Part shown: positions 20,317 to 38,851 of the stretch, one piece after another
Layout of the letters: each line of letters starts with the position of its first letter
Position numbering within the stretch: the stretch's first letter is position 1
IMG/VR virus record: IMGVR_UViG_3300046792_000108
Coordinates: 1-62,638 of that record
Strand: one strand, 5' to 3'
Length of the DNA stretch: 62,638 bases
From: a virus
Made by a program: the position numbers and the translations under genes
Notes under the pieces: generated by a model
Told to the model about the DNA's origin: nothing
The model's database searches: none
Seen by the model: the letters and a program-made list of their open reading frames with translations, nothing else

Positions 20317-20396
20317 GCGGTAGTCACCGCAGTCGGAGGTCGGACCCAAGTCCACTCAAGCGGTCAGGAGAAGTCCCGCCCATCCGACCTCCGACT
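20317..20396 (-). promoter_or_regulatory. Structured leader: 14-bp stem-loop plus adjacent small hairpin
   Basis: AGTCGGAGGTCGGA (20331-20344) and TCCGACCTCCGACT (20383-20396) form a perfect 14-bp inverted repeat with a 38-base loop. Next to it GCGGTAGTCACCGC (20317-20330) makes a 5-bp hairpin, only three bases before the Shine-Dalgarno of the 60-aa gene. There is no U-run, so this looks like an mRNA control or processing element, not a terminator. Confidence 0.6.
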
Positions 20397-20403
20397 CCGT
20401 TGA

Positions 20404-20754
20404 TTATCGGAGCCGTTCCACCTGTTCAACTTCTGCCAGTTTCTTCCCAATCATCACCCCCAAAGCTAGTATTCCAGCTTGAGATGCCATGATCGGAACT
20501 TCGAGACCCAGTAATTTCACCAGACCCGTTATCTGTGATCCAAGCATGAGATGATTTACGAATTCAAAAGACTCGGATATCTCCCTAGATCTCATTATTA
20601 CAGATGCCGTATCACAAATAGGGCAACCGATCTTTCCTCCAGAGTTCAGTACTTCTAAATTCTTTTCAACTACTCCTTGCCCGGAGTGGACATGATCGTG
20701 GGTTTTTCTAAGTTCTGAGACACAGGACTCAAATATCTCTTTTGTTAGTTCCAT
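20404..20754 (-). CDS. Unknown protein with CxxC motif and hydrophobic C-terminal half, 116 aa
   Basis: N-terminal helix (MELTKEIFESCVSELRKTHD), then CPICDTASVIMRSREI, then a glycine- and alanine-rich hydrophobic stretch (LVKLLGLEVPIMASQAGILA, LGVMIGKKLAE) that might contact a membrane. ATG 20754 has AAAGGAGAG upstream. No family recognised. Confidence 0.6.
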   Translation of the reverse strand: MELTKEIFESCVSELRKTHDHVHSGQGVVEKNLEVLNSGGKIGCPICDTASVIMRSREISESFEFVNHLMLGSQITGLVKLLGLEVPIMASQAGILALGVMIGKKLAEVEQVERLR

Positions 20755-26472: not shown

Positions 26473-26663
26473 ATATCTAACCCCTGTTCTCTCTTTGTTG
26501 CACAAGAGTTGCAATACCCATACCCAGGACGAAGCCGAACTGTTCTTCCACATCCCTGGCATTTTGTTGGACGAGATTCCTTTTGAACCTGGCGATAAAA
26601 CTCAACGTCTTCCTCAGATTCAATCTCGTATTGACCAAAGTTGTCGTCATAATAAGCTGGCAT
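26469..26663 (-). CDS. Small zinc-ribbon protein, 64 aa
   Basis: MPAYYDDNFGQYEIESEEDV, then KCQGCGRTVRLRPGYGYCNS with two CxxC pairs. ATG 26663 follows AAGGAG. Proteins of this YDDNFGxYEIESEEDVEFY type recur in phages; function unknown. The stop overlaps the next ATG. Confidence 0.7.
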   Translation of the reverse strand: MPAYYDDNFGQYEIESEEDVEFYRQVQKESRPTKCQGCGRTVRLRPGYGYCNSCATKREQGLDI

Positions 26664-26673
26664 TACTTTCTCC

Positions 26674-26817
26674 TTATCCAACCTGGATAACTTTCCCACA
26701 TCGGGCACATTCGAAGCCGTGAGTTTGAACTGCAGGCCTGTAATCATAAGGTACTGGGACCTGATCTTTTTCAGGACAGGTGCACCAGAAATCGTCTACG
26801 ATTTTCTTCTTACTCAT
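26674..26817 (-). CDS. Very small zinc-ribbon protein, 47 aa
   Basis: MSKKKIVDDFWCTCPEKDQV and FECARCGKVIQVG give two cysteine pairs. ATG 26817 overlaps the stop of the 81-aa gene. A third small zinc protein in this cluster. Confidence 0.6.
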   Translation of the reverse strand: MSKKKIVDDFWCTCPEKDQVPVPYDYRPAVQTHGFECARCGKVIQVG

Positions 26818-27055
26818 CTTCCCACTCGAATTCTCGATCGTCAAGGATCTGTTGAAGAATCATGATCTGACCTAATGAATCCTCCCATGTCACGATGCTT
26901 TGAATATCGTTGTATGGGTCATCGGTTAGCAGATCAATAGCCCTTATCAAATCTTCTTCCGTAGGATTAACTATCTGTTGAAATTCGCAACTCAACTTAC
27001 CGAGTTGAATGTAAATCTCATCTACCTTAGCTTGTTGTTCAGGTGTTAATGGCAT
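26810..27055 (-). CDS. Small helical protein, paralog of the gene at 26242, 81 aa
   Basis: MPLTPEQQAKVDEIYIQLGK and CEFQQIVNPTEEDLIRAIDL align with the 76-aa neighbour. ATG 27055 follows GAGGAGGAAT. Acidic C terminus (DDREFEWEDE). Function unknown. Confidence 0.65.
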   Translation of the reverse strand: MPLTPEQQAKVDEIYIQLGKLSCEFQQIVNPTEEDLIRAIDLLTDDPYNDIQSIVTWEDSLGQIMILQQILDDREFEWEDE

Positions 27056-27063
27056 ATTCCTCC

Positions 27064-27417
27064 TCAATCCCACCACAGTTTCAGGTAATTGATTCTTCCG
27101 ACTTTCTCAATCGAGGCCTCATCGCAGTTCTGGGATAACTCCACAAGATCTTCTTTCGATAGAACTCGAATCGGAATCCAAACATGATCGAAAAGAATTT
27201 CCTTATCTTCAACCATATCCGGTCTTTCCGGATCAATGGATGGACCGAACAAACAGTGGTCTAGAGGAAATGGCGAGGAAAATGTCTCCTCAACCTCATC
27301 TGCGTTGTGGATTGCCATAATCCTATCGGGGAATTGAGATTTCCAAACTGCCAGTGGCTTTGCTTCCATCTCCCGAAAACCGTCGGTAGATGCCGCATTA
27401 ACTATTGGTCGTTTCAT
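27064..27417 (-). CDS. Small protein of unknown function, 117 aa
   Basis: MKRPIVNAASTDGFREMEAK, then FPDRIMAIHNADEVEETFSS, ILFDHVWIPIRVLSKEDLVE and a Trp-rich end (YLKLWWD). AAAAAGGAG precedes ATG 27417. It is preceded by a run of RNA hairpins (27430-27483). No family recognised. Confidence 0.6.
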   Translation of the reverse strand: MKRPIVNAASTDGFREMEAKPLAVWKSQFPDRIMAIHNADEVEETFSSPFPLDHCLFGPSIDPERPDMVEDKEILFDHVWIPIRVLSKEDLVELSQNCDEASIEKVGRINYLKLWWD

Positions 27418-27429
27418 AAAACTCCTTTT

Positions 27430-27483
27430 TGTCAGAACTTGGGACTGACATGTTGCATTAACAGGACGAGCTGTGCTCGCCTG
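27430..27483 (-). promoter_or_regulatory. Two hairpins in the leader of the 117-aa gene
   Basis: TGTCAG (27430-27435) pairs with CTGACA (27445-27450). CAGGACGAGC (27462-27471) pairs with GCTCGCCTG (27475-27483) with one bulged base. On the mRNA the first is followed by AAAAAGGAG, so it abuts the ribosome site. Neither has a U-run. Confidence 0.45.
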
Positions 27484-27492
27484 CCCCTCTGC

Positions 27493-27687
27493 GACTATGT
27501 CTCATGCGAGATTAACTCGCATCCTGTCACCCGGACAGGTTTTCGGTTATTGGCGTCTTTTCGTATTCTTCAACGATTTCTCTTACACCATCGCAGAATT
27601 CATCAACCGTACAGCCTCCGCGGTTGTAGTGAACTATCAAACTATCTATCTTTTCTTTCATGGTTTAACCTCCCATGAGACATAGTC
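27493..27687 (-). repeat. Cassette B: small gene enclosed by a perfect 14-bp inverted repeat
   Basis: Arms GACTATGTCTCATG (27493-27506) and CATGAGACATAGTC (27674-27687) are exact reverse complements and enclose the whole 44-aa gene. Inside the upstream arm comes GGGAGGTTAAAC before the ATG; inside the downstream arm lies the hairpin GCGAGTTAATCTCGC. Both inner elements are identical in cassette A, while the outer ten bases differ. In RNA the gene would sit in the loop of a long-range stem. Confidence 0.75.
27527..27661 (-). CDS. Cassette B protein, 44 aa
   Basis: ATG 27661 after GGGAGG; TGA 27529-27527. It is acidic and helical: MKEKIDSLIVHYNRGGCTVD, then EFCDGVREIVEEYEKTPITE. No family recognised. 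The GGCTVDEFCDGV element suggests a small regulatory or adaptor protein (guess). Confidence 0.6.
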   Translation of the reverse strand: MKEKIDSLIVHYNRGGCTVDEFCDGVREIVEEYEKTPITENLSG

Positions 27688-27689
27688 CC

Positions 27690-27893
27690 TTCTGTGCATC
27701 ATGCGAGATTAACTCGCACCTTCAACTATAACTTTAAGATCAGTTAGAGTTACAGTACCATCCTTACGAGTAATACGAGTCTTATTCGTAAGAAATTCAA
27801 CCTGTTGACATTCTGTATAGATTGCAACCGGAGTATCACACCCCACATTCCATAAAGAAATCTTCATAGTTTAACCTCCCATGATGCACAGAA
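27690..27893 (-). repeat. Cassette A: small gene enclosed by a different perfect 14-bp inverted repeat
   Basis: Arms TTCTGTGCATCATG (27690-27703) and CATGATGCACAGAA (27880-27893) enclose the 52-aa gene. The inner leader GGGAGGTTAAAC and the tail hairpin GCGAGTTAATCTCGC match cassette B, but the arm sequence is its own. Only two bases (27688-27689) separate the cassettes, as if the units were added in tandem. Confidence 0.75.
27709..27867 (-). CDS. Cassette A protein, 52 aa
   Basis: ATG 27867 after GGGAGG; the TAA (27711-27709) lies inside the loop of the cassette's tail hairpin. Sequence MKISLWNVGCDTPVAIYTEC, then VEFLTNKTRITRKDGTVTLT: a beta-rich small protein with two cysteines. Unrelated to the cassette B protein. 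Function unknown. Confidence 0.6.
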   Translation of the reverse strand: MKISLWNVGCDTPVAIYTECQQVEFLTNKTRITRKDGTVTLTDLKVIVEGAS

Positions 27894-28129
27894 CTTATGC
27901 TACTACCTAGACCGTTGTACGATTCGTTTCTTCTACTCACATACGTGGCTTTACTGGTGGTTCGTATGTGCCTCAGGAACTATGTCGTCGAATCTAGGAT
28001 TCACGCCGTGTGGTGCCGATGGCATCCTGCCGCACGGACTTTTCAAGATTTGGGAACCTTGACCTGCCTCGAGAAATGAGATCCGTAACTGAGTCGTACC
28101 CAGTGCAGAGCAATCGTGCGTCAAGTTAA
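27894..28129 (-). other. Non-coding, strongly structured stretch
   Basis: I see no credible gene or tRNA here. Three inverted repeats stand out: CACATACG/CGTATGTG (27938-27945 and 27963-27970), CCGTGTGG/CCGCACGG (28006-28013 and 28030-28037, one G-U pair) with an inner TGCC/GGCA, and a 20-bp near-palindrome centred on GTTAATTAAC (28120-28139) that contains the stop of the upstream gene. It may be a regulatory RNA or decayed cassettes. Confidence 0.5.
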
Positions 28130-28351
28130 TTAACCTGACCATCCGGTCTGTGTCACACTCACAGCATCATAGATGTAGAACTTGCGATACTTCCGCTTCT
28201 CAATTTCTTTGCGCGGTCCAGGACCATTGGCCTGTCGCATAGTTTGAGAATTGGAAGGAAAGATATTTCCTCCGACGTGCCTGCGCAGCGTCAGATACAA
28301 ATTCCTCTCGCCGTAGCTTGTCGCATCTCCCTCGGCCTCGAACCGTTTCAA
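28130..28351 (-). CDS. Possible basic protein of 73 aa, start uncertain
   Basis: Open from a TTG at 28351: KRFEAEGDATSYGERNLYLT, LRRHVGGNIFPSNSQTMRQA, then a basic segment PRKEIEKRKYRKFYIYDAV. The same frame remains protein-like for about 16 codons further upstream, with no usual start codon. A promoter lies 80-110 bases upstream. The stop sits in a near-palindrome. No family recognised. Confidence 0.4.
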   Translation of the reverse strand: MKRFEAEGDATSYGERNLYLTLRRHVGGNIFPSNSQTMRQANGPGPRKEIEKRKYRKFYIYDAVSVTQTGWSG

Positions 28352-28428
28352 GGTCCCGTTTAACCGTTTTGACTCCGAGGTGCGATGGTTATCAAAGATT
28401 CAGGATTACGAAATCCTGTTATGTCAAT

Positions 28429-28458
28429 ATCATAAAAGACCTGCATAGTGTTTGTCAA
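28429..28458 (-). promoter_or_regulatory. Early-type promoter
   Basis: Reverse strand: CCATTGACA (TTGACA 28458-28453), 18-bp spacer, TATGAT (28434-28429). A small hairpin AGGATTTCGTAATCCT follows in the leader. Confidence 0.6.
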
Positions 28459-28475
28459 TGGAGAACTAAAACTTT

Positions 28476-28772
28476 TTACTCAGTAGGTTTGCAATTTGGA
28501 TCAAACTCTCCTTCTGCTATGTCTACTACATCCACGAACACATACTCCCCGAAGGGTTGAGCTTCTTCTCCAACCACCCTAAAACCTTTCCTCACCTCTC
28601 CCGTAGCTCCACAGAAGAAGCATGAGGTAAGTTGACAACTCCTTATATCATCCAGATCAACAATTAAAATCTTACATTCACTCTCCCTAGAAACCTCGTC
28701 CGACTCCTCACAACAGCCAAAACCTACGGGGAGATCTTTAAGCTTTTTCGTTTTTACCCAAGCTAATCTCAT
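28476..28772 (-). CDS. Cys-rich small protein, 98 aa
   Basis: MRLAWVKTKKLKDLPVGFGC, SRESECKILIVDLDDIRSCQ, TSCFFCGATGEVRKGFRVVG: a CxxC pair plus further cysteines. ATG 28772 overlaps the stop of the SLOG-like gene. Function unknown. Confidence 0.6.
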   Translation of the reverse strand: MRLAWVKTKKLKDLPVGFGCCEESDEVSRESECKILIVDLDDIRSCQLTSCFFCGATGEVRKGFRVVGEEAQPFGEYVFVDVVDIAEGEFDPNCKPTE

Positions 28773-29197
28773 AAGATATACCACACTGCCTTTCTACCAT
28801 GCTCCCTGGCGTAGATCGCTGTCCAGCAACCTCCGGATTTCACATGTGTTGTGGAGTTACAATGGTAGCACTGATCAAATCTTCTACCTTTGAAATCCGG
28901 CGGATACTGAGCAAGTACGATGTTGTGAATCTCATCTGACTTCAGTGCAATGCGAATGTTGCGAGGCTTGAATCCCGTGTTCCAGTCAAGGTGCCGTGGT
29001 GGAAATGGGTAGTACGGCTTGTCAAGTTCTAGGCATACAATCTTTGCCCAAATATCAATTCCTCCCAGATGACACTCACCAGATGCGACTCCAGTGCATC
29101 GAGGGTCTGAGATCAACCGAATGAGCAAAGTCTTTGCATCACTCTCGGTCTCAGGTGTGAACTTAGCTTCTTCAGCTCCGACGATACCGTAGATCAC
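28769..29197 (-). CDS. SLOG-like Rossmann-fold protein with a zinc element, 142 aa
   Basis: MIYGIVGAEEAKFTPETESD, then CTGVASGECHLGGIDIWAKI and HLDWNTGFKPRNIRIALKSD follow the pattern of small SLOG/DprA-like nucleotide-binding proteins found in phages. CYHCNSTTHVKSGGCW near the C terminus is a zinc-binding addition. SLOG domains bind nucleotides or nucleotide signals; whether this one senses or degrades a host signal is open. GTG 29197 overlaps the upstream stop. Confidence 0.55.
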   Translation of the reverse strand: MIYGIVGAEEAKFTPETESDAKTLLIRLISDPRCTGVASGECHLGGIDIWAKIVCLELDKPYYPFPPRHLDWNTGFKPRNIRIALKSDEIHNIVLAQYPPDFKGRRFDQCYHCNSTTHVKSGGCWTAIYAREHGRKAVWYIL

Positions 29198-29364
29198 TTG
29201 ATCCTCACCACGAGTGCAGAGTTTAATCCTTTATCCTCCAAAAACATTTCAATCAAGGCGGTGTAACACTCTTCAGGTTTAGAATTTTTCCGAAGTTCAT
29301 CACTAACCAGTTTGTCCAATTCTTCTTTCTTGATCCTGATTGTAAACTCGAGAGTTTCCATCAT
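29194..29364 (-). CDS. Small helical protein, 56 aa
   Basis: METLEFTIRIKKEELDKLVS, then DELRKNSKPEECYTALIEMF. It resembles a ribbon-helix-helix-like small protein. ATG 29364 overlaps the upstream TGA and its own TGA overlaps GTG 29197. Function unknown. Confidence 0.55.
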   Translation of the reverse strand: MMETLEFTIRIKKEELDKLVSDELRKNSKPEECYTALIEMFLEDKGLNSALVVRIK

Positions 29365-29768
29365 CCGAATATCTTCCTTTTCCTTGCGTACATGTCTCTG
29401 AGGCGGAACAGCTCATCTGGTGTGATTCTCTCCAGATCTAACTCATCCAACCATTCCTGGACCTTATCCTTAAACTTGCATTCGTATCGTGCGAACTGTT
29501 GGAGGATAAATTCTGCTTCCTGATTACGCTTAGGTTGGAATTTATGGCCTGTGCTGCGTCTCACGCTGCTATCTACACCGTACTGGTGGATAAACTTCTG
29601 TGGCTCGTCAGGTTTAAGATGAGACGGTTTACGTGGTTCAGGACCTTTCAGGATGGTCCGTATGCGCTGGCGAGATGCCGGGTTACGAGGCAATCCAATC
29701 GCTAGCGCAATCTTACCTGTCGTGAGGCCCTGCTTGTGCAACTCGAAGATGTGTTCAAGAGGGAGCAT
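29361..29768 (-). CDS. HTH DNA-binding protein, 135 aa
   Basis: LEHIFELHKQGLTTGKIALA then IGLPRNPASRQRIRTIL is a resolvase/MerR-like helix-turn-helix; a basic middle and helical C terminus (ERITPDELFRLRDMYARKRK) follow. Probably a transcription regulator or DNA architectural protein. Confidence 0.6.
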   Translation of the reverse strand: MLPLEHIFELHKQGLTTGKIALAIGLPRNPASRQRIRTILKGPEPRKPSHLKPDEPQKFIHQYGVDSSVRRSTGHKFQPKRNQEAEFILQQFARYECKFKDKVQEWLDELDLERITPDELFRLRDMYARKRKIFG

Positions 29769-29981
29769 CTATATCTCCCCTTCGTGTTTGTAGTCTTCAC
29801 ACTCACAAGCTACGATCTCAACTACTCCTTCGCGAGGCAATGAGATCACTAGGCTAGTCCTGAATCTTCTGCTCTGGTCAAGATTCATACCGTACTTACT
29901 GACCGCGTAATCCTCGGCTTCTTCTCTATCAGTAAATACCCCTTCGAGATTCTTCCTGTTGTGAATTAAGATCCAATGCAT
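29769..29981 (-). CDS. Small protein of unknown function, 70 aa
   Basis: MHWILIHNRKNLEGVFTDRE, EAEDYAVSKYGMNLDQSRRF, EGVVEIVACECEDYKHEGEI: an alpha-beta layout. Directly abuts the HTH gene. No family recognised. Confidence 0.6.
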   Translation of the reverse strand: MHWILIHNRKNLEGVFTDREEAEDYAVSKYGMNLDQSRRFRTSLVISLPREGVVEIVACECEDYKHEGEI

Positions 29982-29998
29982 GTTTTACCTCGCACATC

Positions 29999-30277
29999 TT
30001 ACCCGAAGTAAGCTATGATGATGTTGTCCATAGCATCTTGTAGTTTCTTATAAGTTCCTACCCAGCAAAATCCCATTGTCGCTCTCCAGTTCTGATCATC
30101 GAACCACAAAACTCCGAGAGGAGTGATTTTCTTATCCTTGGGATCTGTATGTATTACAACCCCGAAGGTGTTGTCCTCTGAACTTTCGGTGATAAGTGAA
30201 ACATCTTTCCTCTGTTTAGCTGTGAGAGGGTGTTCCTTCATTGAAGTTTTAAATGACCTCAAAAACTCAGGTTTCAT
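29999..30277 (-). CDS. Small protein of unknown function, 92 aa
   Basis: ATG 30277 follows GAGG; an ATG at 30289 is upstream of that site and less likely. Landmarks: MKPEFLRSFKTSMKEHPLTA, NTFGVVIHTDPKDKKITPLG, WFDDQNWRATMGFCWVG. Beta-rich. Served by the promoter at 30295-30324. Confidence 0.6.
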   Translation of the reverse strand: MKPEFLRSFKTSMKEHPLTAKQRKDVSLITESSEDNTFGVVIHTDPKDKKITPLGVLWFDDQNWRATMGFCWVGTYKKLQDAMDNIIIAYFG

Positions 30278-35560: not shown

Positions 35561-36203
35561 AACTGGACGACAACGCGGGGACAACCGTAAGATATACGGG
35601 AGCAAGCCTGGCAGGTTGAGCAAGCGTAATCCTATCAATGATGATCAGGTCGGCACAGCTCATGCCAAGCGCAGCAGGTTCATCGACCATTACATGGTTA
35701 ATCTATCTGTGAAAGAGGCTGCTCAGGCTGTGGACATCTCCATACGCCAGGGGAGCAAGTATCTCAATAAACCTGAGATTCAGCTTGAGATTCAGGAACG
35801 CATGGAACGGCGCTCTCAGCGGTTACAGATCGACAGTGACTACGTGCTTGAGACAATCCGTGATACTGTGGAACGGTGCAGATCTCTCAAATCTGTCAGG
35901 ACTCGGGAAGGAATTCCCATCTTAGTCCATGTCCCAGATCACGGCGAGGCAATGGCTTTAGTTGAATTTGACGCTATGGCTGTGCTTAAAGGATGCGAGC
36001 TCCTTGGCAAACACTTGAAGATGTTTACTGAGAAATTCGTGCTTGACTTTGAGGATATTGAAAACATGACAGACCAGCAACTGTCGGTCCTGGCGAACAG
36101 GATCCGCCGCGCATTGATGAAAAAATCGGCTATTGATGGTGATCAATCGGACACAACAGTCACTCAACAACCCAGGTTGACGGAGGGAGTTGAGCTTGGC
36201 TAG
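35547..36203 (+). CDS. terS: Terminase small subunit, 218 aa
   Basis: It binds the packaging start site and hands DNA to TerL. After a basic N terminus the HTH domain reads KRSRFIDHYMVNLSVKEAAQ, AVDISIRQGSKYLNKPEIQL, typical of Terminase_2 proteins, with a coiled coil (MERRSQRLQIDSDYVLETIR) behind. GTG 35547 is chosen because GGAGAG lies just upstream. Confidence 0.85.
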   Translation: MPVIKTGRQRGDNRKIYGSKPGRLSKRNPINDDQVGTAHAKRSRFIDHYMVNLSVKEAAQAVDISIRQGSKYLNKPEIQLEIQERMERRSQRLQIDSDYVLETIRDTVERCRSLKSVRTREGIPILVHVPDHGEAMALVEFDAMAVLKGCELLGKHLKMFTEKFVLDFEDIENMTDQQLSVLANRIRRALMKKSAIDGDQSDTTVTQQPRLTEGVELG

Positions 36204-37098
36204 TCACTCCACAGATTTGGAGTTCTTGAATGCTTTTTTGCTTAATGAGCAACGAAAGCGGGTCACTCTCCGCGCTAAGCATCGTAAGATCGACACTTAT
36301 TACCCTGACGAGGGACCGCTTCGCCGAGAACTCTACCCCAGACACCTGGAGTTTTTTGCCGCAGGAGGAAAACATCAGCCTAGTCCTGCCTGCCCTCCAG
36401 GTTGTGATGGGAAGCCACACACAGAAAGATGCTTCCTCGCCGCTAACCGTGTGGGAAAAACGGAAGGTGTGGGCGCCTACGAGATGGCACTTCACTTGAC
36501 CGGTGATTATCCAGCCTGGTGGCCTGGCCGTCGATTCAGCCATGCTACTCGATGCTGGGCTGCCGGTGATACTTCCAAGACTGTTCACCTGGAAATCCTG
36601 CAACCGAAACTCCTAGGGATGCCTGGTCAGTTTGGTACTGGTATGATTCCTGGAGATAAGATTAAGGACTTGACCAGGAAAGTTGGAATGCCAGATGCCA
36701 TCGAGACCATTTATGTGTATCACGCTGCTGTGACAAGAGACTCATCCTTCCCCGGAAGCAAAAAAGCTCATGAGGTTTCGATTCTCACATTAAAATCGTA
36801 TGAGCAGGGCAGAGAATCGTTTCAGGGAACTGAGAAAGATGTAATTTGGCTTGATGAAGAGTGTGACAGGGAGATTTACACTGAATGTCTGCTCCGCCTC
36901 TTGGCTGTAATACCTGGCAAAGCCAACGGACTTATGATCTTGACCTTTACACCGCTTGAGGGAATGACCGACATTGTGAGGGATTTCCTCGGCATGAACG
37001 AATCTACCACCCCAGGAGCTGTTGGAAGCCCTGAGATGGAGAATTTTGGAACCCCGAAAGGAGAATTGACTCATGGACGTATTAAAACCGTTTCGTAA
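36196..37098 (+). CDS. terL: Terminase large subunit, ATPase half (gene split), 300 aa
   Basis: DNA-packaging motor. Walker A-like CFLAANRVGKTEGVGAYE (about 80-97), Walker B VIWLDEECDREIY, coupling motif LMILTFTPLEGMTDIVRDFL. The normal chain would continue into the nuclease, but this frame ends soon after with a non-conserved tail. The nuclease half is at 38126-38851, after two inserted genes. TTG 36196 (MASHSTDLEF) has GGAGGG eight bases upstream; TTG 36190 is possible. Confidence 0.85.
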   Translation: MASHSTDLEFLNAFLLNEQRKRVTLRAKHRKIDTYYPDEGPLRRELYPRHLEFFAAGGKHQPSPACPPGCDGKPHTERCFLAANRVGKTEGVGAYEMALHLTGDYPAWWPGRRFSHATRCWAAGDTSKTVHLEILQPKLLGMPGQFGTGMIPGDKIKDLTRKVGMPDAIETIYVYHAAVTRDSSFPGSKKAHEVSILTLKSYEQGRESFQGTEKDVIWLDEECDREIYTECLLRLLAVIPGKANGLMILTFTPLEGMTDIVRDFLGMNESTTPGAVGSPEMENFGTPKGELTHGRIKTVS

Positions 37099-37669
37099 CT
37101 TCTTCTCTCAACCTAAAGAAACCGATATCACCCGCAGGAATTTCCTGCTTGGAGCTAGTGCTGTCACAGGATTGGTTGTGGCAAGCCGAGTTTTTCCGTT
37201 CCGCACTTACAGCTTTGCACCTCAACTCCATTCCCTGAGTGTACCTGGTTCACTGTTTAAAGTCGGTGACAGATTCTCGACTCCTACTGGAGTGATTTAT
37301 GAGGTGACTGGGATAGGAGAGTCAGATCACACAGTGGATGCTCTCAGGTATTCTGTTCCTCTTACCGTGATCAACGAGTATGACTTCCGAAATCAGTCTA
37401 AGTTGATTAGTCGAGTTGATGAACTTTACGGGTTTGGTTATGTTGACCCGAAAGCTGACTGGACTGAGCCTTCTACAATACGTCAAAGGTTGATGATGGA
37501 TTCAAGACTAAAGAACTTCAAAGCATCCCTACACGATATTCATCTTAGAGGAATAAATGTCAACCGGGATATTCACGGGGAAAGGAAGTTTGAACTTGAA
37601 AGGAACGGTTCAGTTAACAAGATCATTACGAGATTTTATCAAGGAGAGGAGCATAATGAGCCCAGTTAA
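37073..37669 (+). CDS. Tat-signal-like protein inserted within terL, 198 aa
   Basis: The N terminus has a twin-arginine motif TRRNFLLGASAVTGLVVASR (residues 19-38): T-R-R-x-F-L plus a hydrophobic stretch. The rest is a soluble domain (LFKVGDRFSTPTGVIYEVTG, RVDELYGFGYVDPKADW). AAAGGAG precedes ATG 37073, and the 5' end overlaps the terL ATPase frame by 26 bp. A Tat signal in a packaging operon is surprising; it might also serve as a membrane anchor. No family recognised. Confidence 0.65.
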   Translation: MDVLKPFRNFFSQPKETDITRRNFLLGASAVTGLVVASRVFPFRTYSFAPQLHSLSVPGSLFKVGDRFSTPTGVIYEVTGIGESDHTVDALRYSVPLTVINEYDFRNQSKLISRVDELYGFGYVDPKADWTEPSTIRQRLMMDSRLKNFKASLHDIHLRGINVNRDIHGERKFELERNGSVNKIITRFYQGEEHNEPS

Positions 37670-38126
37670 AGATATTCATCTGATGTCCGACGAAGAGATT
37701 GTCAAACTCGTCGGTGAAGCCCATAACCACGTCAAGCAAGTTCACAACATCGACAAAGATCATGCGGAGTTTGACAAGTTCCTGGCAATGCATCCTTATT
37801 ACGCAGATGCCGTCGCCGAGTATAAGAGGCGGAATCTCGGTGAAACTCTTAAGAAAGGTGATGTTATCAGCATCCCGAGTATCAATCTCGTCAACCCGAA
37901 AAGTTCATCCTCAGTTGAGATCCCACAGAAGTCAGAAGAAGCACAGAATCCGATTCCTGAGGGATCTGGTCAAGAGGTTCCTCTGATTCCTCCCGAAGGA
38001 AAACTTCCGTCAGAGGAAGTCCCAGCCCACAAGCTGGAAGAAGCTATCAAGAAGGAAGAACCAAACATCACCGACGAGCAGTTGAAAGAAGAAGTCAAGC
38101 TCCGTAAGGAAGAAACCAAGAGCTAA
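37656..38126 (+). CDS. Pro/Glu/Lys-rich protein inserted within terL, 156 aa
   Basis: MSPVKDIHLMSDEEIVKLVG, then HNIDKDHAEFDKFLAMHPYY, then a low-complexity Pro/Glu/Lys tail. AGGAGAGGAG precedes ATG 37656; it overlaps the Tat-like gene, and its TAA overlaps the ATG of the nuclease half. It probably entered together with the Tat-like gene. Function unknown. Confidence 0.65.
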   Translation: MSPVKDIHLMSDEEIVKLVGEAHNHVKQVHNIDKDHAEFDKFLAMHPYYADAVAEYKRRNLGETLKKGDVISIPSINLVNPKSSSSVEIPQKSEEAQNPIPEGSGQEVPLIPPEGKLPSEEVPAHKLEEAIKKEEPNITDEQLKEEVKLRKEETKS

Positions 38127-38851
38127 TGTCCAGGTTTGTCATCACCGCAACGTGGGACGATGTACCTCATCTCAGCGAGGAAGCGAAGTCTCAACTCCTC
38201 GCTGGGATTCCTCCTTATCAGAGGGACGCCAGGACGAAAGGAATTCCTCAGTTAGGTTCTGGAGCTATCTATCCTGTCCCTGAGCAAGATATCTTGGTGA
38301 ACGATTTTCCAATCCCGACCTGGTACCCTCAAGGTTATGGGATGGATGTTGGGTGGAACCGGACTGCTGCACTTTGGGGTGCATTAGACCGAGAAAAAGA
38401 CATTCTATACCTGACATCAGAACATTATCGTGGTCAGGCAGAACCTATTGTCCACGCTACAGCAATCCGAGCTCGTGGCTCGTGGATACCCGGAGTGATT
38501 GATCCCGCAGCTCGTCAGAGGGGACAGAAAGATGGCATTCGGCTGATGCAGACTTACATTGAACTTGGGCTGGATTTGTCAAAGGCTGTAAATGCTGTAG
38601 AATCAGGAATTTATCTTGTGTGGCAGCGGTTGAGCACTGGTAGGCTCAAGGTGTTCCGCAGCATGAGTAACTGGCTGTTGGAATACCGAGTCTACCAGAG
38701 GGACACGGATGGAAAGATCGTGAAAGAGAATGATCACTTGATGGATGCTATGAGGTATCTGGTAGTATCCGGTATTCATCGAATGATCACACAACCTTTT
38801 GAAGAAAGCCATGAAAGCAAACCTCCTCGCATCGTAAGTGCTTGGGGGTAA
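38126..38851 (+). CDS. terL: Terminase large subunit, nuclease half (gene split), 241 aa
   Basis: MSRFVITATWDDVPHLSEEA, then KSQLLAGIPPYQRDARTKGI and PQLGSGAIYPVPE form the usual TerL linker into the RNase H-fold nuclease: MDVGWNRTAALWGALD (first catalytic Asp), HATAIRARGSWIPGVIDPAA, KENDHLMDAMRYLV (last Asp pair). All expected nuclease motifs are present, so the two halves probably assemble in trans. Confidence 0.85.
   Translation: MSRFVITATWDDVPHLSEEAKSQLLAGIPPYQRDARTKGIPQLGSGAIYPVPEQDILVNDFPIPTWYPQGYGMDVGWNRTAALWGALDREKDILYLTSEHYRGQAEPIVHATAIRARGSWIPGVIDPAARQRGQKDGIRLMQTYIELGLDLSKAVNAVESGIYLVWQRLSTGRLKVFRSMSNWLLEYRVYQRDTDGKIVKENDHLMDAMRYLVVSGIHRMITQPFEESHESKPPRIVSAWG

What the first reader, a model, noticed from the sequence alone, without database searches (positions are those of the whole stretch)
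27493..27893. Tandem small-gene cassettes, each inside its own perfect 14-bp inverted repeat
Two unrelated small genes (44 and 52 aa) share an identical leader (CATGGGAGGTTAAAC before the ATG) and an identical tail hairpin (GCGAGTTAATCTCGCATG). The outermost ten bases of each cassette form a cassette-specific inverted repeat (GACTATGTCT.. and TTCTGTGCAT..). The units are only 2 bp apart. In RNA each gene would be the loop of a long-range stem next to its Shine-Dalgarno. Shared inner parts with private outer arms look like a modular gene-insertion or RNA-protection design that I do not know.
Basis: seen in the sequence. Interest (0 to 1): 0.88.

Follow-up and report, generated by a model that had tools for sequence, protein, structure and literature searches.

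The report
Fold-back control of phage small genes
Two tiny neighbouring phage genes each carry matching ends that should clamp their messenger RNA into a loop and hide its ribosome-binding site, a layout resembling known self-locking toxin messages, here as a repeated frame with different private clamps beside a self-cutting RNA; no second example was found.

Summary
On the minus strand of a P22-like phage, two unrelated small ORFs (44 and 52 aa) sit in identical frames: private arm, CATGGGAGGTTAAAC, ORF, GCGAGTTAATCTCGCATG, complementary arm. Both inverted repeats are 14 bp and perfect; about 0.1 that long is expected per window. The arms differ at 5 of 10 outer positions and all 5 changes are compensated; crossed arms pair 11-14 kcal/mol more weakly.

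The shared inner parts extend pairing by 8 bp onto the Shine-Dalgarno (22 pairs in all). The tail hairpin competes with that helix. Before the 3' arm exists, the leader pairs with the start-codon region. A Twister-P5 ribozyme begins where cassette 1 ends.

Most likely this is 5'-3' fold-back translational control, working like hok/aapA mRNAs, with private arms keeping the tandem copies apart. Function is inferred from sequence and computed folding only. RNase III processing or RNA protection is the main rival. No further instance was found in IMG/VR, GTDB or phage records, or among 3,790 ORFs of fetched loci, so covariation rests on two copies. I rate it a new variant of a known kind.

The parts
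27690..27893 (-). Cassette 2: 204 bp, bounded by the perfect 14-bp inverted repeat TTCTGTGCATCATG
   Evidence: RNA fold z -8.1
27709..27867 (-). 52-aa ORF of cassette 2; no family match above cut-off; its stop codon TAA lies inside the shared tail
   Evidence: codon score 99.6th percentile
27869..27883 (-). Shared leader CATGGGAGGTTAAAC with Shine-Dalgarno GGGAGGT, cassette 2
27700..27717 (-). Shared tail GCGAGTTAATCTCGCATG, cassette 2: local hairpin, or anti-Shine-Dalgarno (TTAATCTC) in the long-range helix
27493..27687 (-). Cassette 1: 195 bp, bounded by the perfect 14-bp inverted repeat GACTATGTCTCATG
   Evidence: RNA fold z -5.3
27527..27661 (-). 44-aa ORF of cassette 1; acidic, not hydrophobic, no family match
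   Evidence: codon score 95.1th percentile
27663..27677 (-). Shared leader CATGGGAGGTTAAAC, cassette 1; its CATG can also pair with the start-codon CATG (6-bp hairpin with the Shine-Dalgarno in its loop)
27503..27520 (-). Shared tail GCGAGTTAATCTCGCATG, cassette 1
27432..27493 (-). Twister-P5 self-cleaving ribozyme starting at the 3' end of cassette 1; predicted to cut the cassette transcript from the downstream early genes
   Evidence: Rfam RF02684, 38.5 bits against gathering 37.6, E 5.5e-06 on the 2-kb search
28429..28458 (-). Sigma-70-like promoter TTGACA-18-TATGAT, 11 of 12 matches, the best candidate for driving the cassettes
   Evidence: consensus match only
27894..28428 (-). About 530-nt leader between promoter and cassette 2: a moderately structured RNA, or partly coding (73-aa TTG ORF 28351..28130 has a coding-like score)
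   Evidence: fold z -2.1; codon score
27064..27417 (-). Next early gene (117 aa, unknown), downstream of the ribozyme

Best explanation
Each cassette is a small early phage gene whose mRNA is translationally controlled by 5'-3' fold-back. Before the 3' arm is made, the leader CATG pairs with the start-codon region, leaving the Shine-Dalgarno in a loop (predicted). Once the 3' end exists, the private 10-bp arms clamp the two ends of the unit. The shared inner parts then choose between two states: anti-Shine-Dalgarno UUAAUCUC pairs with the Shine-Dalgarno GAGGUUAA (22 pairs in all, translation off), or it is held in the local tail hairpin GCGAG/CUCGC (translation on). The private arms differ so that each 5' end finds its own 3' end and tandem copies do not cross-pair or recombine. 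The Twister-P5 ribozyme just after cassette 1 cuts the cassette RNA from the rest of the early operon. Shown: the sequence elements, the compensated differences, the predicted energies and the ribozyme match. Inferred: that the structures form in the cell, that they repress translation, that the ribozyme cuts, and what switches the units on.
For: Two 14-bp perfect repeats where about 0.1 is expected. 22 of 22 pairs are kept in both copies, with 5 compensated double changes and none uncompensated; sliding the partner by 1-3 columns gives 29-48% paired and 0-1 such changes. Cognate arm duplexes are -21.5 and -21.6 kcal/mol against -7.6 and -10.3 for crossed arms. In the RNA of both cassettes plus twister, outer-stem probability is 0.92 and 0.97 and Shine-Dalgarno/anti-Shine-Dalgarno pairing 0.76 and 0.95. 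Nascent RNA up to the stop codon forms the start-codon hairpin with probability 0.93 and 0.60. Shine-Dalgarno accessibility in cassette 1 falls from about 0.71 to 0.15 when the 3' arm appears. Twister-P5 adjoins. The same logic is established for hok and aapA mRNAs: metastable structures, then a long-distance interaction between the mRNA ends that hides the Shine-Dalgarno (PMC6733600).
Against: Only two copies, adjacent in one genome, so they are not independent. No homologous region was found to test covariation. The Shine-Dalgarno/anti-Shine-Dalgarno part is identical in both copies and so gives no covariation evidence. The off state is favoured by 3.2 and 11.3 kcal/mol over a forced tail hairpin, so the switch to on is unexplained; ribosome binding during transcription could outrun it. 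Unrestricted folding of the whole leader breaks stem 1, although folding limited to 300-nt spans keeps it. In cassette 2 the nascent RNA up to the tail already prefers the Shine-Dalgarno/anti-Shine-Dalgarno helix over the tail hairpin.
Confidence: 0.5

Rival explanations
1. RNA processing or protection: the 14- to 22-bp stems are double-stranded processing stalks (RNase III type) or end clamps that release or stabilise each small mRNA, like the stems that bracket bacterial rRNAs and the RNase III sites of phage T7 early mRNA (own knowledge). The Twister-P5 next door does a similar job by self-cleavage.
For: Long, nearly perfect duplexes bracket each unit, the units nearly abut, and a self-cleaving ribozyme begins exactly where cassette 1 ends. 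In other phages twisters separate tandem small genes.
Against: It does not by itself explain why the shared inner part is a Shine-Dalgarno/anti-Shine-Dalgarno match plus a competing tail hairpin. Other twister phages do not use inverted-repeat brackets.
Confidence: 0.27
2. DNA-level modular cassette: the inverted repeats are recombination or transposition ends (or protein-binding sites), and unrelated genes have been swapped in and out of a common frame.
For: Unrelated ORFs in an identical frame; all 14 outer pairs are Watson-Crick in both copies with no G-U; the leader end GTTAAAC happens to fit the integron core GTTRRRY (inspection).
Against: No target-site duplication, no attC-like self-complementary site between the genes (inspection), no further copies in this genome or in collections. 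The repeats coincide with translation signals, and the inner extension uses a G-U pair.
Confidence: 0.15
3. A recent tandem duplication of one frame with no present function: the shared sequences are descent, and the repeats are residues.
For: Shared 15-nt leader and 18-nt tail in two adjacent units.
Against: The ORFs between are unrelated, and five outer pairs changed on both sides with none changed on one side only, which descent without constraint would not give.
Confidence: 0.06

Closest known systems
hok and aapA type I toxin mRNAs (long-distance 5'-3' interaction, fold-back inhibition)
   Same: Small-ORF mRNA whose 3' end pairs with its 5' end and hides the Shine-Dalgarno, with metastable hairpins while the RNA is being made (PMC6733600)
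   Different: No hydrophobic toxin peptide (19-residue hydropathy maxima 0.20 and 0.44), no antisense promoter found by consensus scan, two tandem units with shared inner and private outer parts, phage early operon, adjoining twister
Start-associated sequences (SAS/ESAS) of cluster K mycobacteriophages
   Same: A conserved sequence containing a Shine-Dalgarno just upstream of unrelated phage genes, some with an inverted repeat (PMC3203893)
   Different: ESAS repeats both lie upstream of the gene with a spacer of mostly 4-13 bp and, according to the authors, do not support RNA pairing; here the arms flank the whole gene and pair with compensation
Twister-P5 ribozyme (RF02684)
   Same: The element at 27493-27432 passes the Rfam gathering score with the conserved GCAGAG, UAAUGC and GUCCCAAG blocks
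   Different: Nothing unusual in itself; it is the neighbour of the cassettes, not part of them
RNase III processing stems (rRNA stalks, T7 early mRNA; own knowledge)
   Same: Long-range duplex bracketing a transcript unit
   Different: Here the duplex continues into the Shine-Dalgarno and competes with a local hairpin

Membership tests
Type I toxin-antitoxin mRNA (hok/aapA kind) | 5' and 3' mRNA ends pair and hide the Shine-Dalgarno | tested here: met
   Predicted pairing probabilities 0.76 and 0.95; computation only
Type I toxin-antitoxin mRNA (hok/aapA kind) | Small hydrophobic membrane-type toxin peptide | tested here: not met
   GRAVY -0.53 and 0.00, no membrane-like stretch
Type I toxin-antitoxin mRNA (hok/aapA kind) | Antisense RNA antitoxin with its own promoter | tested here: inconclusive
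   No plus-strand promoter-like site in 26500-30000; consensus scan only
Cluster K SAS/ESAS | 13-bp GGGATAGGAGCCC within a few bases of start codons, many copies per genome | tested here: not met
   Different sequence, two copies only; consensus from PMC3203893
Cluster K SAS/ESAS | Inverted repeat upstream of the gene with a short spacer (mostly 4-13 bp) | tested here: not met
   Arms flank the gene, 167 and 176 nt between the 14-bp arms
Integron gene cassette | attC site: self-complementary site with R and L boxes 3' of each gene | tested here: not met
   The inter-gene stretch 27663-27717 is not self-complementary as a whole; inspection
Integron gene cassette | Integron integrase in or near the array | not tested
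   No search for IntI was run
Transposon or MITE | Target-site duplication at the outer ends | tested here: not met
   Bases flanking each unit do not repeat (inspection)
Transposon or MITE | Further copies elsewhere | tested here: not met
Twister-P5 ribozyme (neighbouring element) | Covariance-model score over the gathering cut-off with the conserved core | tested here: met
   38.5 against 37.6 bits, full model 1-58
Twister-P5 ribozyme (neighbouring element) | Self-cleavage at the U-A step of UAAUGC | not testable with these tools
   Needs an in vitro cleavage assay
RNase III processing stalk | Cleavage in the duplex by RNase III | not testable with these tools
   Needs RNA end mapping

The most novel reading that the evidence does not exclude
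A modular RNA chassis for phage genes: a reusable frame (Shine-Dalgarno leader plus a tail that can switch) into which unrelated small genes are placed, each given its own orthogonal pair of end arms so that tandem units fold independently, with a self-cleaving ribozyme closing the array.
Probability: 0.15. Interest if true: 0.75.

Novelty: new variant of a known kind. Interest (0 to 1): 0.5.

Why it matters
If the fold-back model holds, translational locking by mRNA end-pairing, known from type I toxin mRNAs, would also be used by a phage on ordinary early small genes, in tandem and with orthogonal arms that keep neighbouring units apart. It would give a compact natural design for independently controlled genes in one transcript, and the two-copy comparison makes the pairing directly testable by compensatory mutation.

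Tried and rejected
Exact leader and tail patterns in 2.9 million viral contigs: 60 and 25 loci, none with a comparable flanking inverted repeat; matches of at most 10 bp were unrelated. Leader plus ATG in GTDB genomes: 4 loci, about what chance gives, no repeat. Relatives by the DUF7168 gene, DNA polymerase, the 52-aa protein and the 117-aa protein: none found. Capsid relatives (13 loci) lack both the region and a twister, but are fragments. Association of inverted-repeat cassettes with twisters elsewhere: 134 ribozymes examined, no comparable cassette. 5'/3' flank complementarity in 3,790 gene-like ORFs of the fetched loci: none above 12 bp, no excess at 10 bp or more over swapped controls. 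Antisense plus-strand ORFs over the cassettes: coding scores within the non-coding range. The terminator idea for the tail hairpin was dropped because no T run follows it. A sequence shared between this leader and the stretches upstream of other twisters: none.

Full report
Observation. The two units exist as described and at the stated coordinates. On the minus strand they read: private arm, CATGGGAGGTTAAAC, start codon, ORF, GCGAGTTAATCTCGCATG, complementary private arm. Cassette 2 (27893..27690) comes first in the transcript, then 2 bp, then cassette 1 (27687..27493). They are the only perfect inverted repeats of 14 bp or more with 80-600 nt spacing in the window; about 0.10 is expected. 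No other gene-like ORF of the window (185 tested) has 5'/3' flank complementarity of 9 bp or more.

First, the pairing continues: after one G/G mismatch, GAGGUUAA of the leader (the Shine-Dalgarno) pairs with UUAAUCUC of the tail, giving 22 pairs. Second, the same UUAAUCUCGC can instead close the local tail hairpin GCGAG-UUAAU-CUCGC, so hairpin and Shine-Dalgarno pairing exclude each other. Third, before the 3' arm is made, the leader UCAUGG can pair with CCAUGA or CUAUGA around the start codon; this hairpin has probability 0.93 and 0.60 in RNA ending at the stop codon. Fourth, a Twister-P5 ribozyme starts where cassette 1 ends.

Evidence for pairing. Between the copies, 5 of the 10 outer pairs differ and all 5 changes are compensated; sliding the partner destroys this. 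With only two, adjacent, probably related copies this is suggestive, not conclusive, and the within-alignment shuffle control reaches the observed value in 11 of 500. Crossed arms pair much more weakly than cognate arms, which would let tandem units fold separately. Each unit folds far better than its shuffles (z -5.3 and -8.1). Folding the full leader without a span limit breaks stem 1, whereas a 300-nt limit keeps both stems.

Mechanism. The best reading is 5'-3' fold-back control of translation, as in hok and aapA mRNAs (PMC6733600). It works like them but is not a member of type I toxin-antitoxin systems: the peptides are not hydrophobic and no antisense promoter was seen. What would turn the genes on is not shown; the computed off state is favoured by 3.2 and 11.3 kcal/mol over a forced tail hairpin. 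RNase III-type processing or end protection is the main rival. A DNA-level mobile cassette is less likely.

Context. The genome is a phage with P22-like portal and coat proteins and a family A DNA polymerase. A strong sigma-70-like promoter match lies at 28458-28429, followed by about 530 nt of leader, then the cassettes, the twister and further small genes. The cassette proteins have no relatives in the libraries and collections searched (the 44-aa protein was not scanned in the viral contigs).

Search for further instances. None was found. The limits are real: viral and genome scans need exact patterns, so a frame with a different leader would be missed, and the closest phage relatives held are fragments.

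Related finding. Searching for Twister-P5 gave 134 ribozyme pattern matches in 85 viral loci, often several between successive small genes. These phages do not carry the inverted-repeat cassettes, but they show that ribozymes between small phage genes are common. The literature found notes that bacterial twister and hammerhead ribozymes are enriched near certain genes, most strongly those of Mu-like phages (PMC10085705); whether such arrays are described elsewhere was not established.

Verdict. A real and unusual layout, most simply explained as a tandem, arm-insulated version of known fold-back control; new variant of a known kind, interest 0.5.

Noticed in passing
L103-L187, for example L117, L137, L152, L158, L167, L171, L182: Arrays of Twister-P5 ribozymes between consecutive small genes in many environmental phage contigs: 134 pattern matches in 85 loci, about 11-12 in contigs 3300027896_000024 and 3300038673_000493. 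Cleavage would give single-gene mRNAs carrying half-ribozymes at both ends, which might even rejoin into circles (speculation).
   Followed up: partly
window 36190-38851 +: The terminase large subunit is split: Terminase_6N at 36190-37098 and Terminase_6C at 38126-38851, separated by about 1 kb with 198- and 189-aa ORFs, while in L089 the two parts lie close together.
   Followed up: partly
window 27894-28428 -: About 530-nt leader after a strong promoter match, with hairpins and a coding-like 73-aa TTG ORF; either an unknown structured RNA or a short gene. L171 also has a long apparently noncoding stretch before its first twister.
   Followed up: partly
L148 and L167: The stretches upstream of the first twisters share 72% identity over 218 nt, suggesting a conserved leader RNA or gene in some twister phages.
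   Followed up: no
window 20318-20409: A 27-nt inverted repeat, 85% complementary with 38 nt between the arms, next to the ORF 20404-20754.
   Followed up: no
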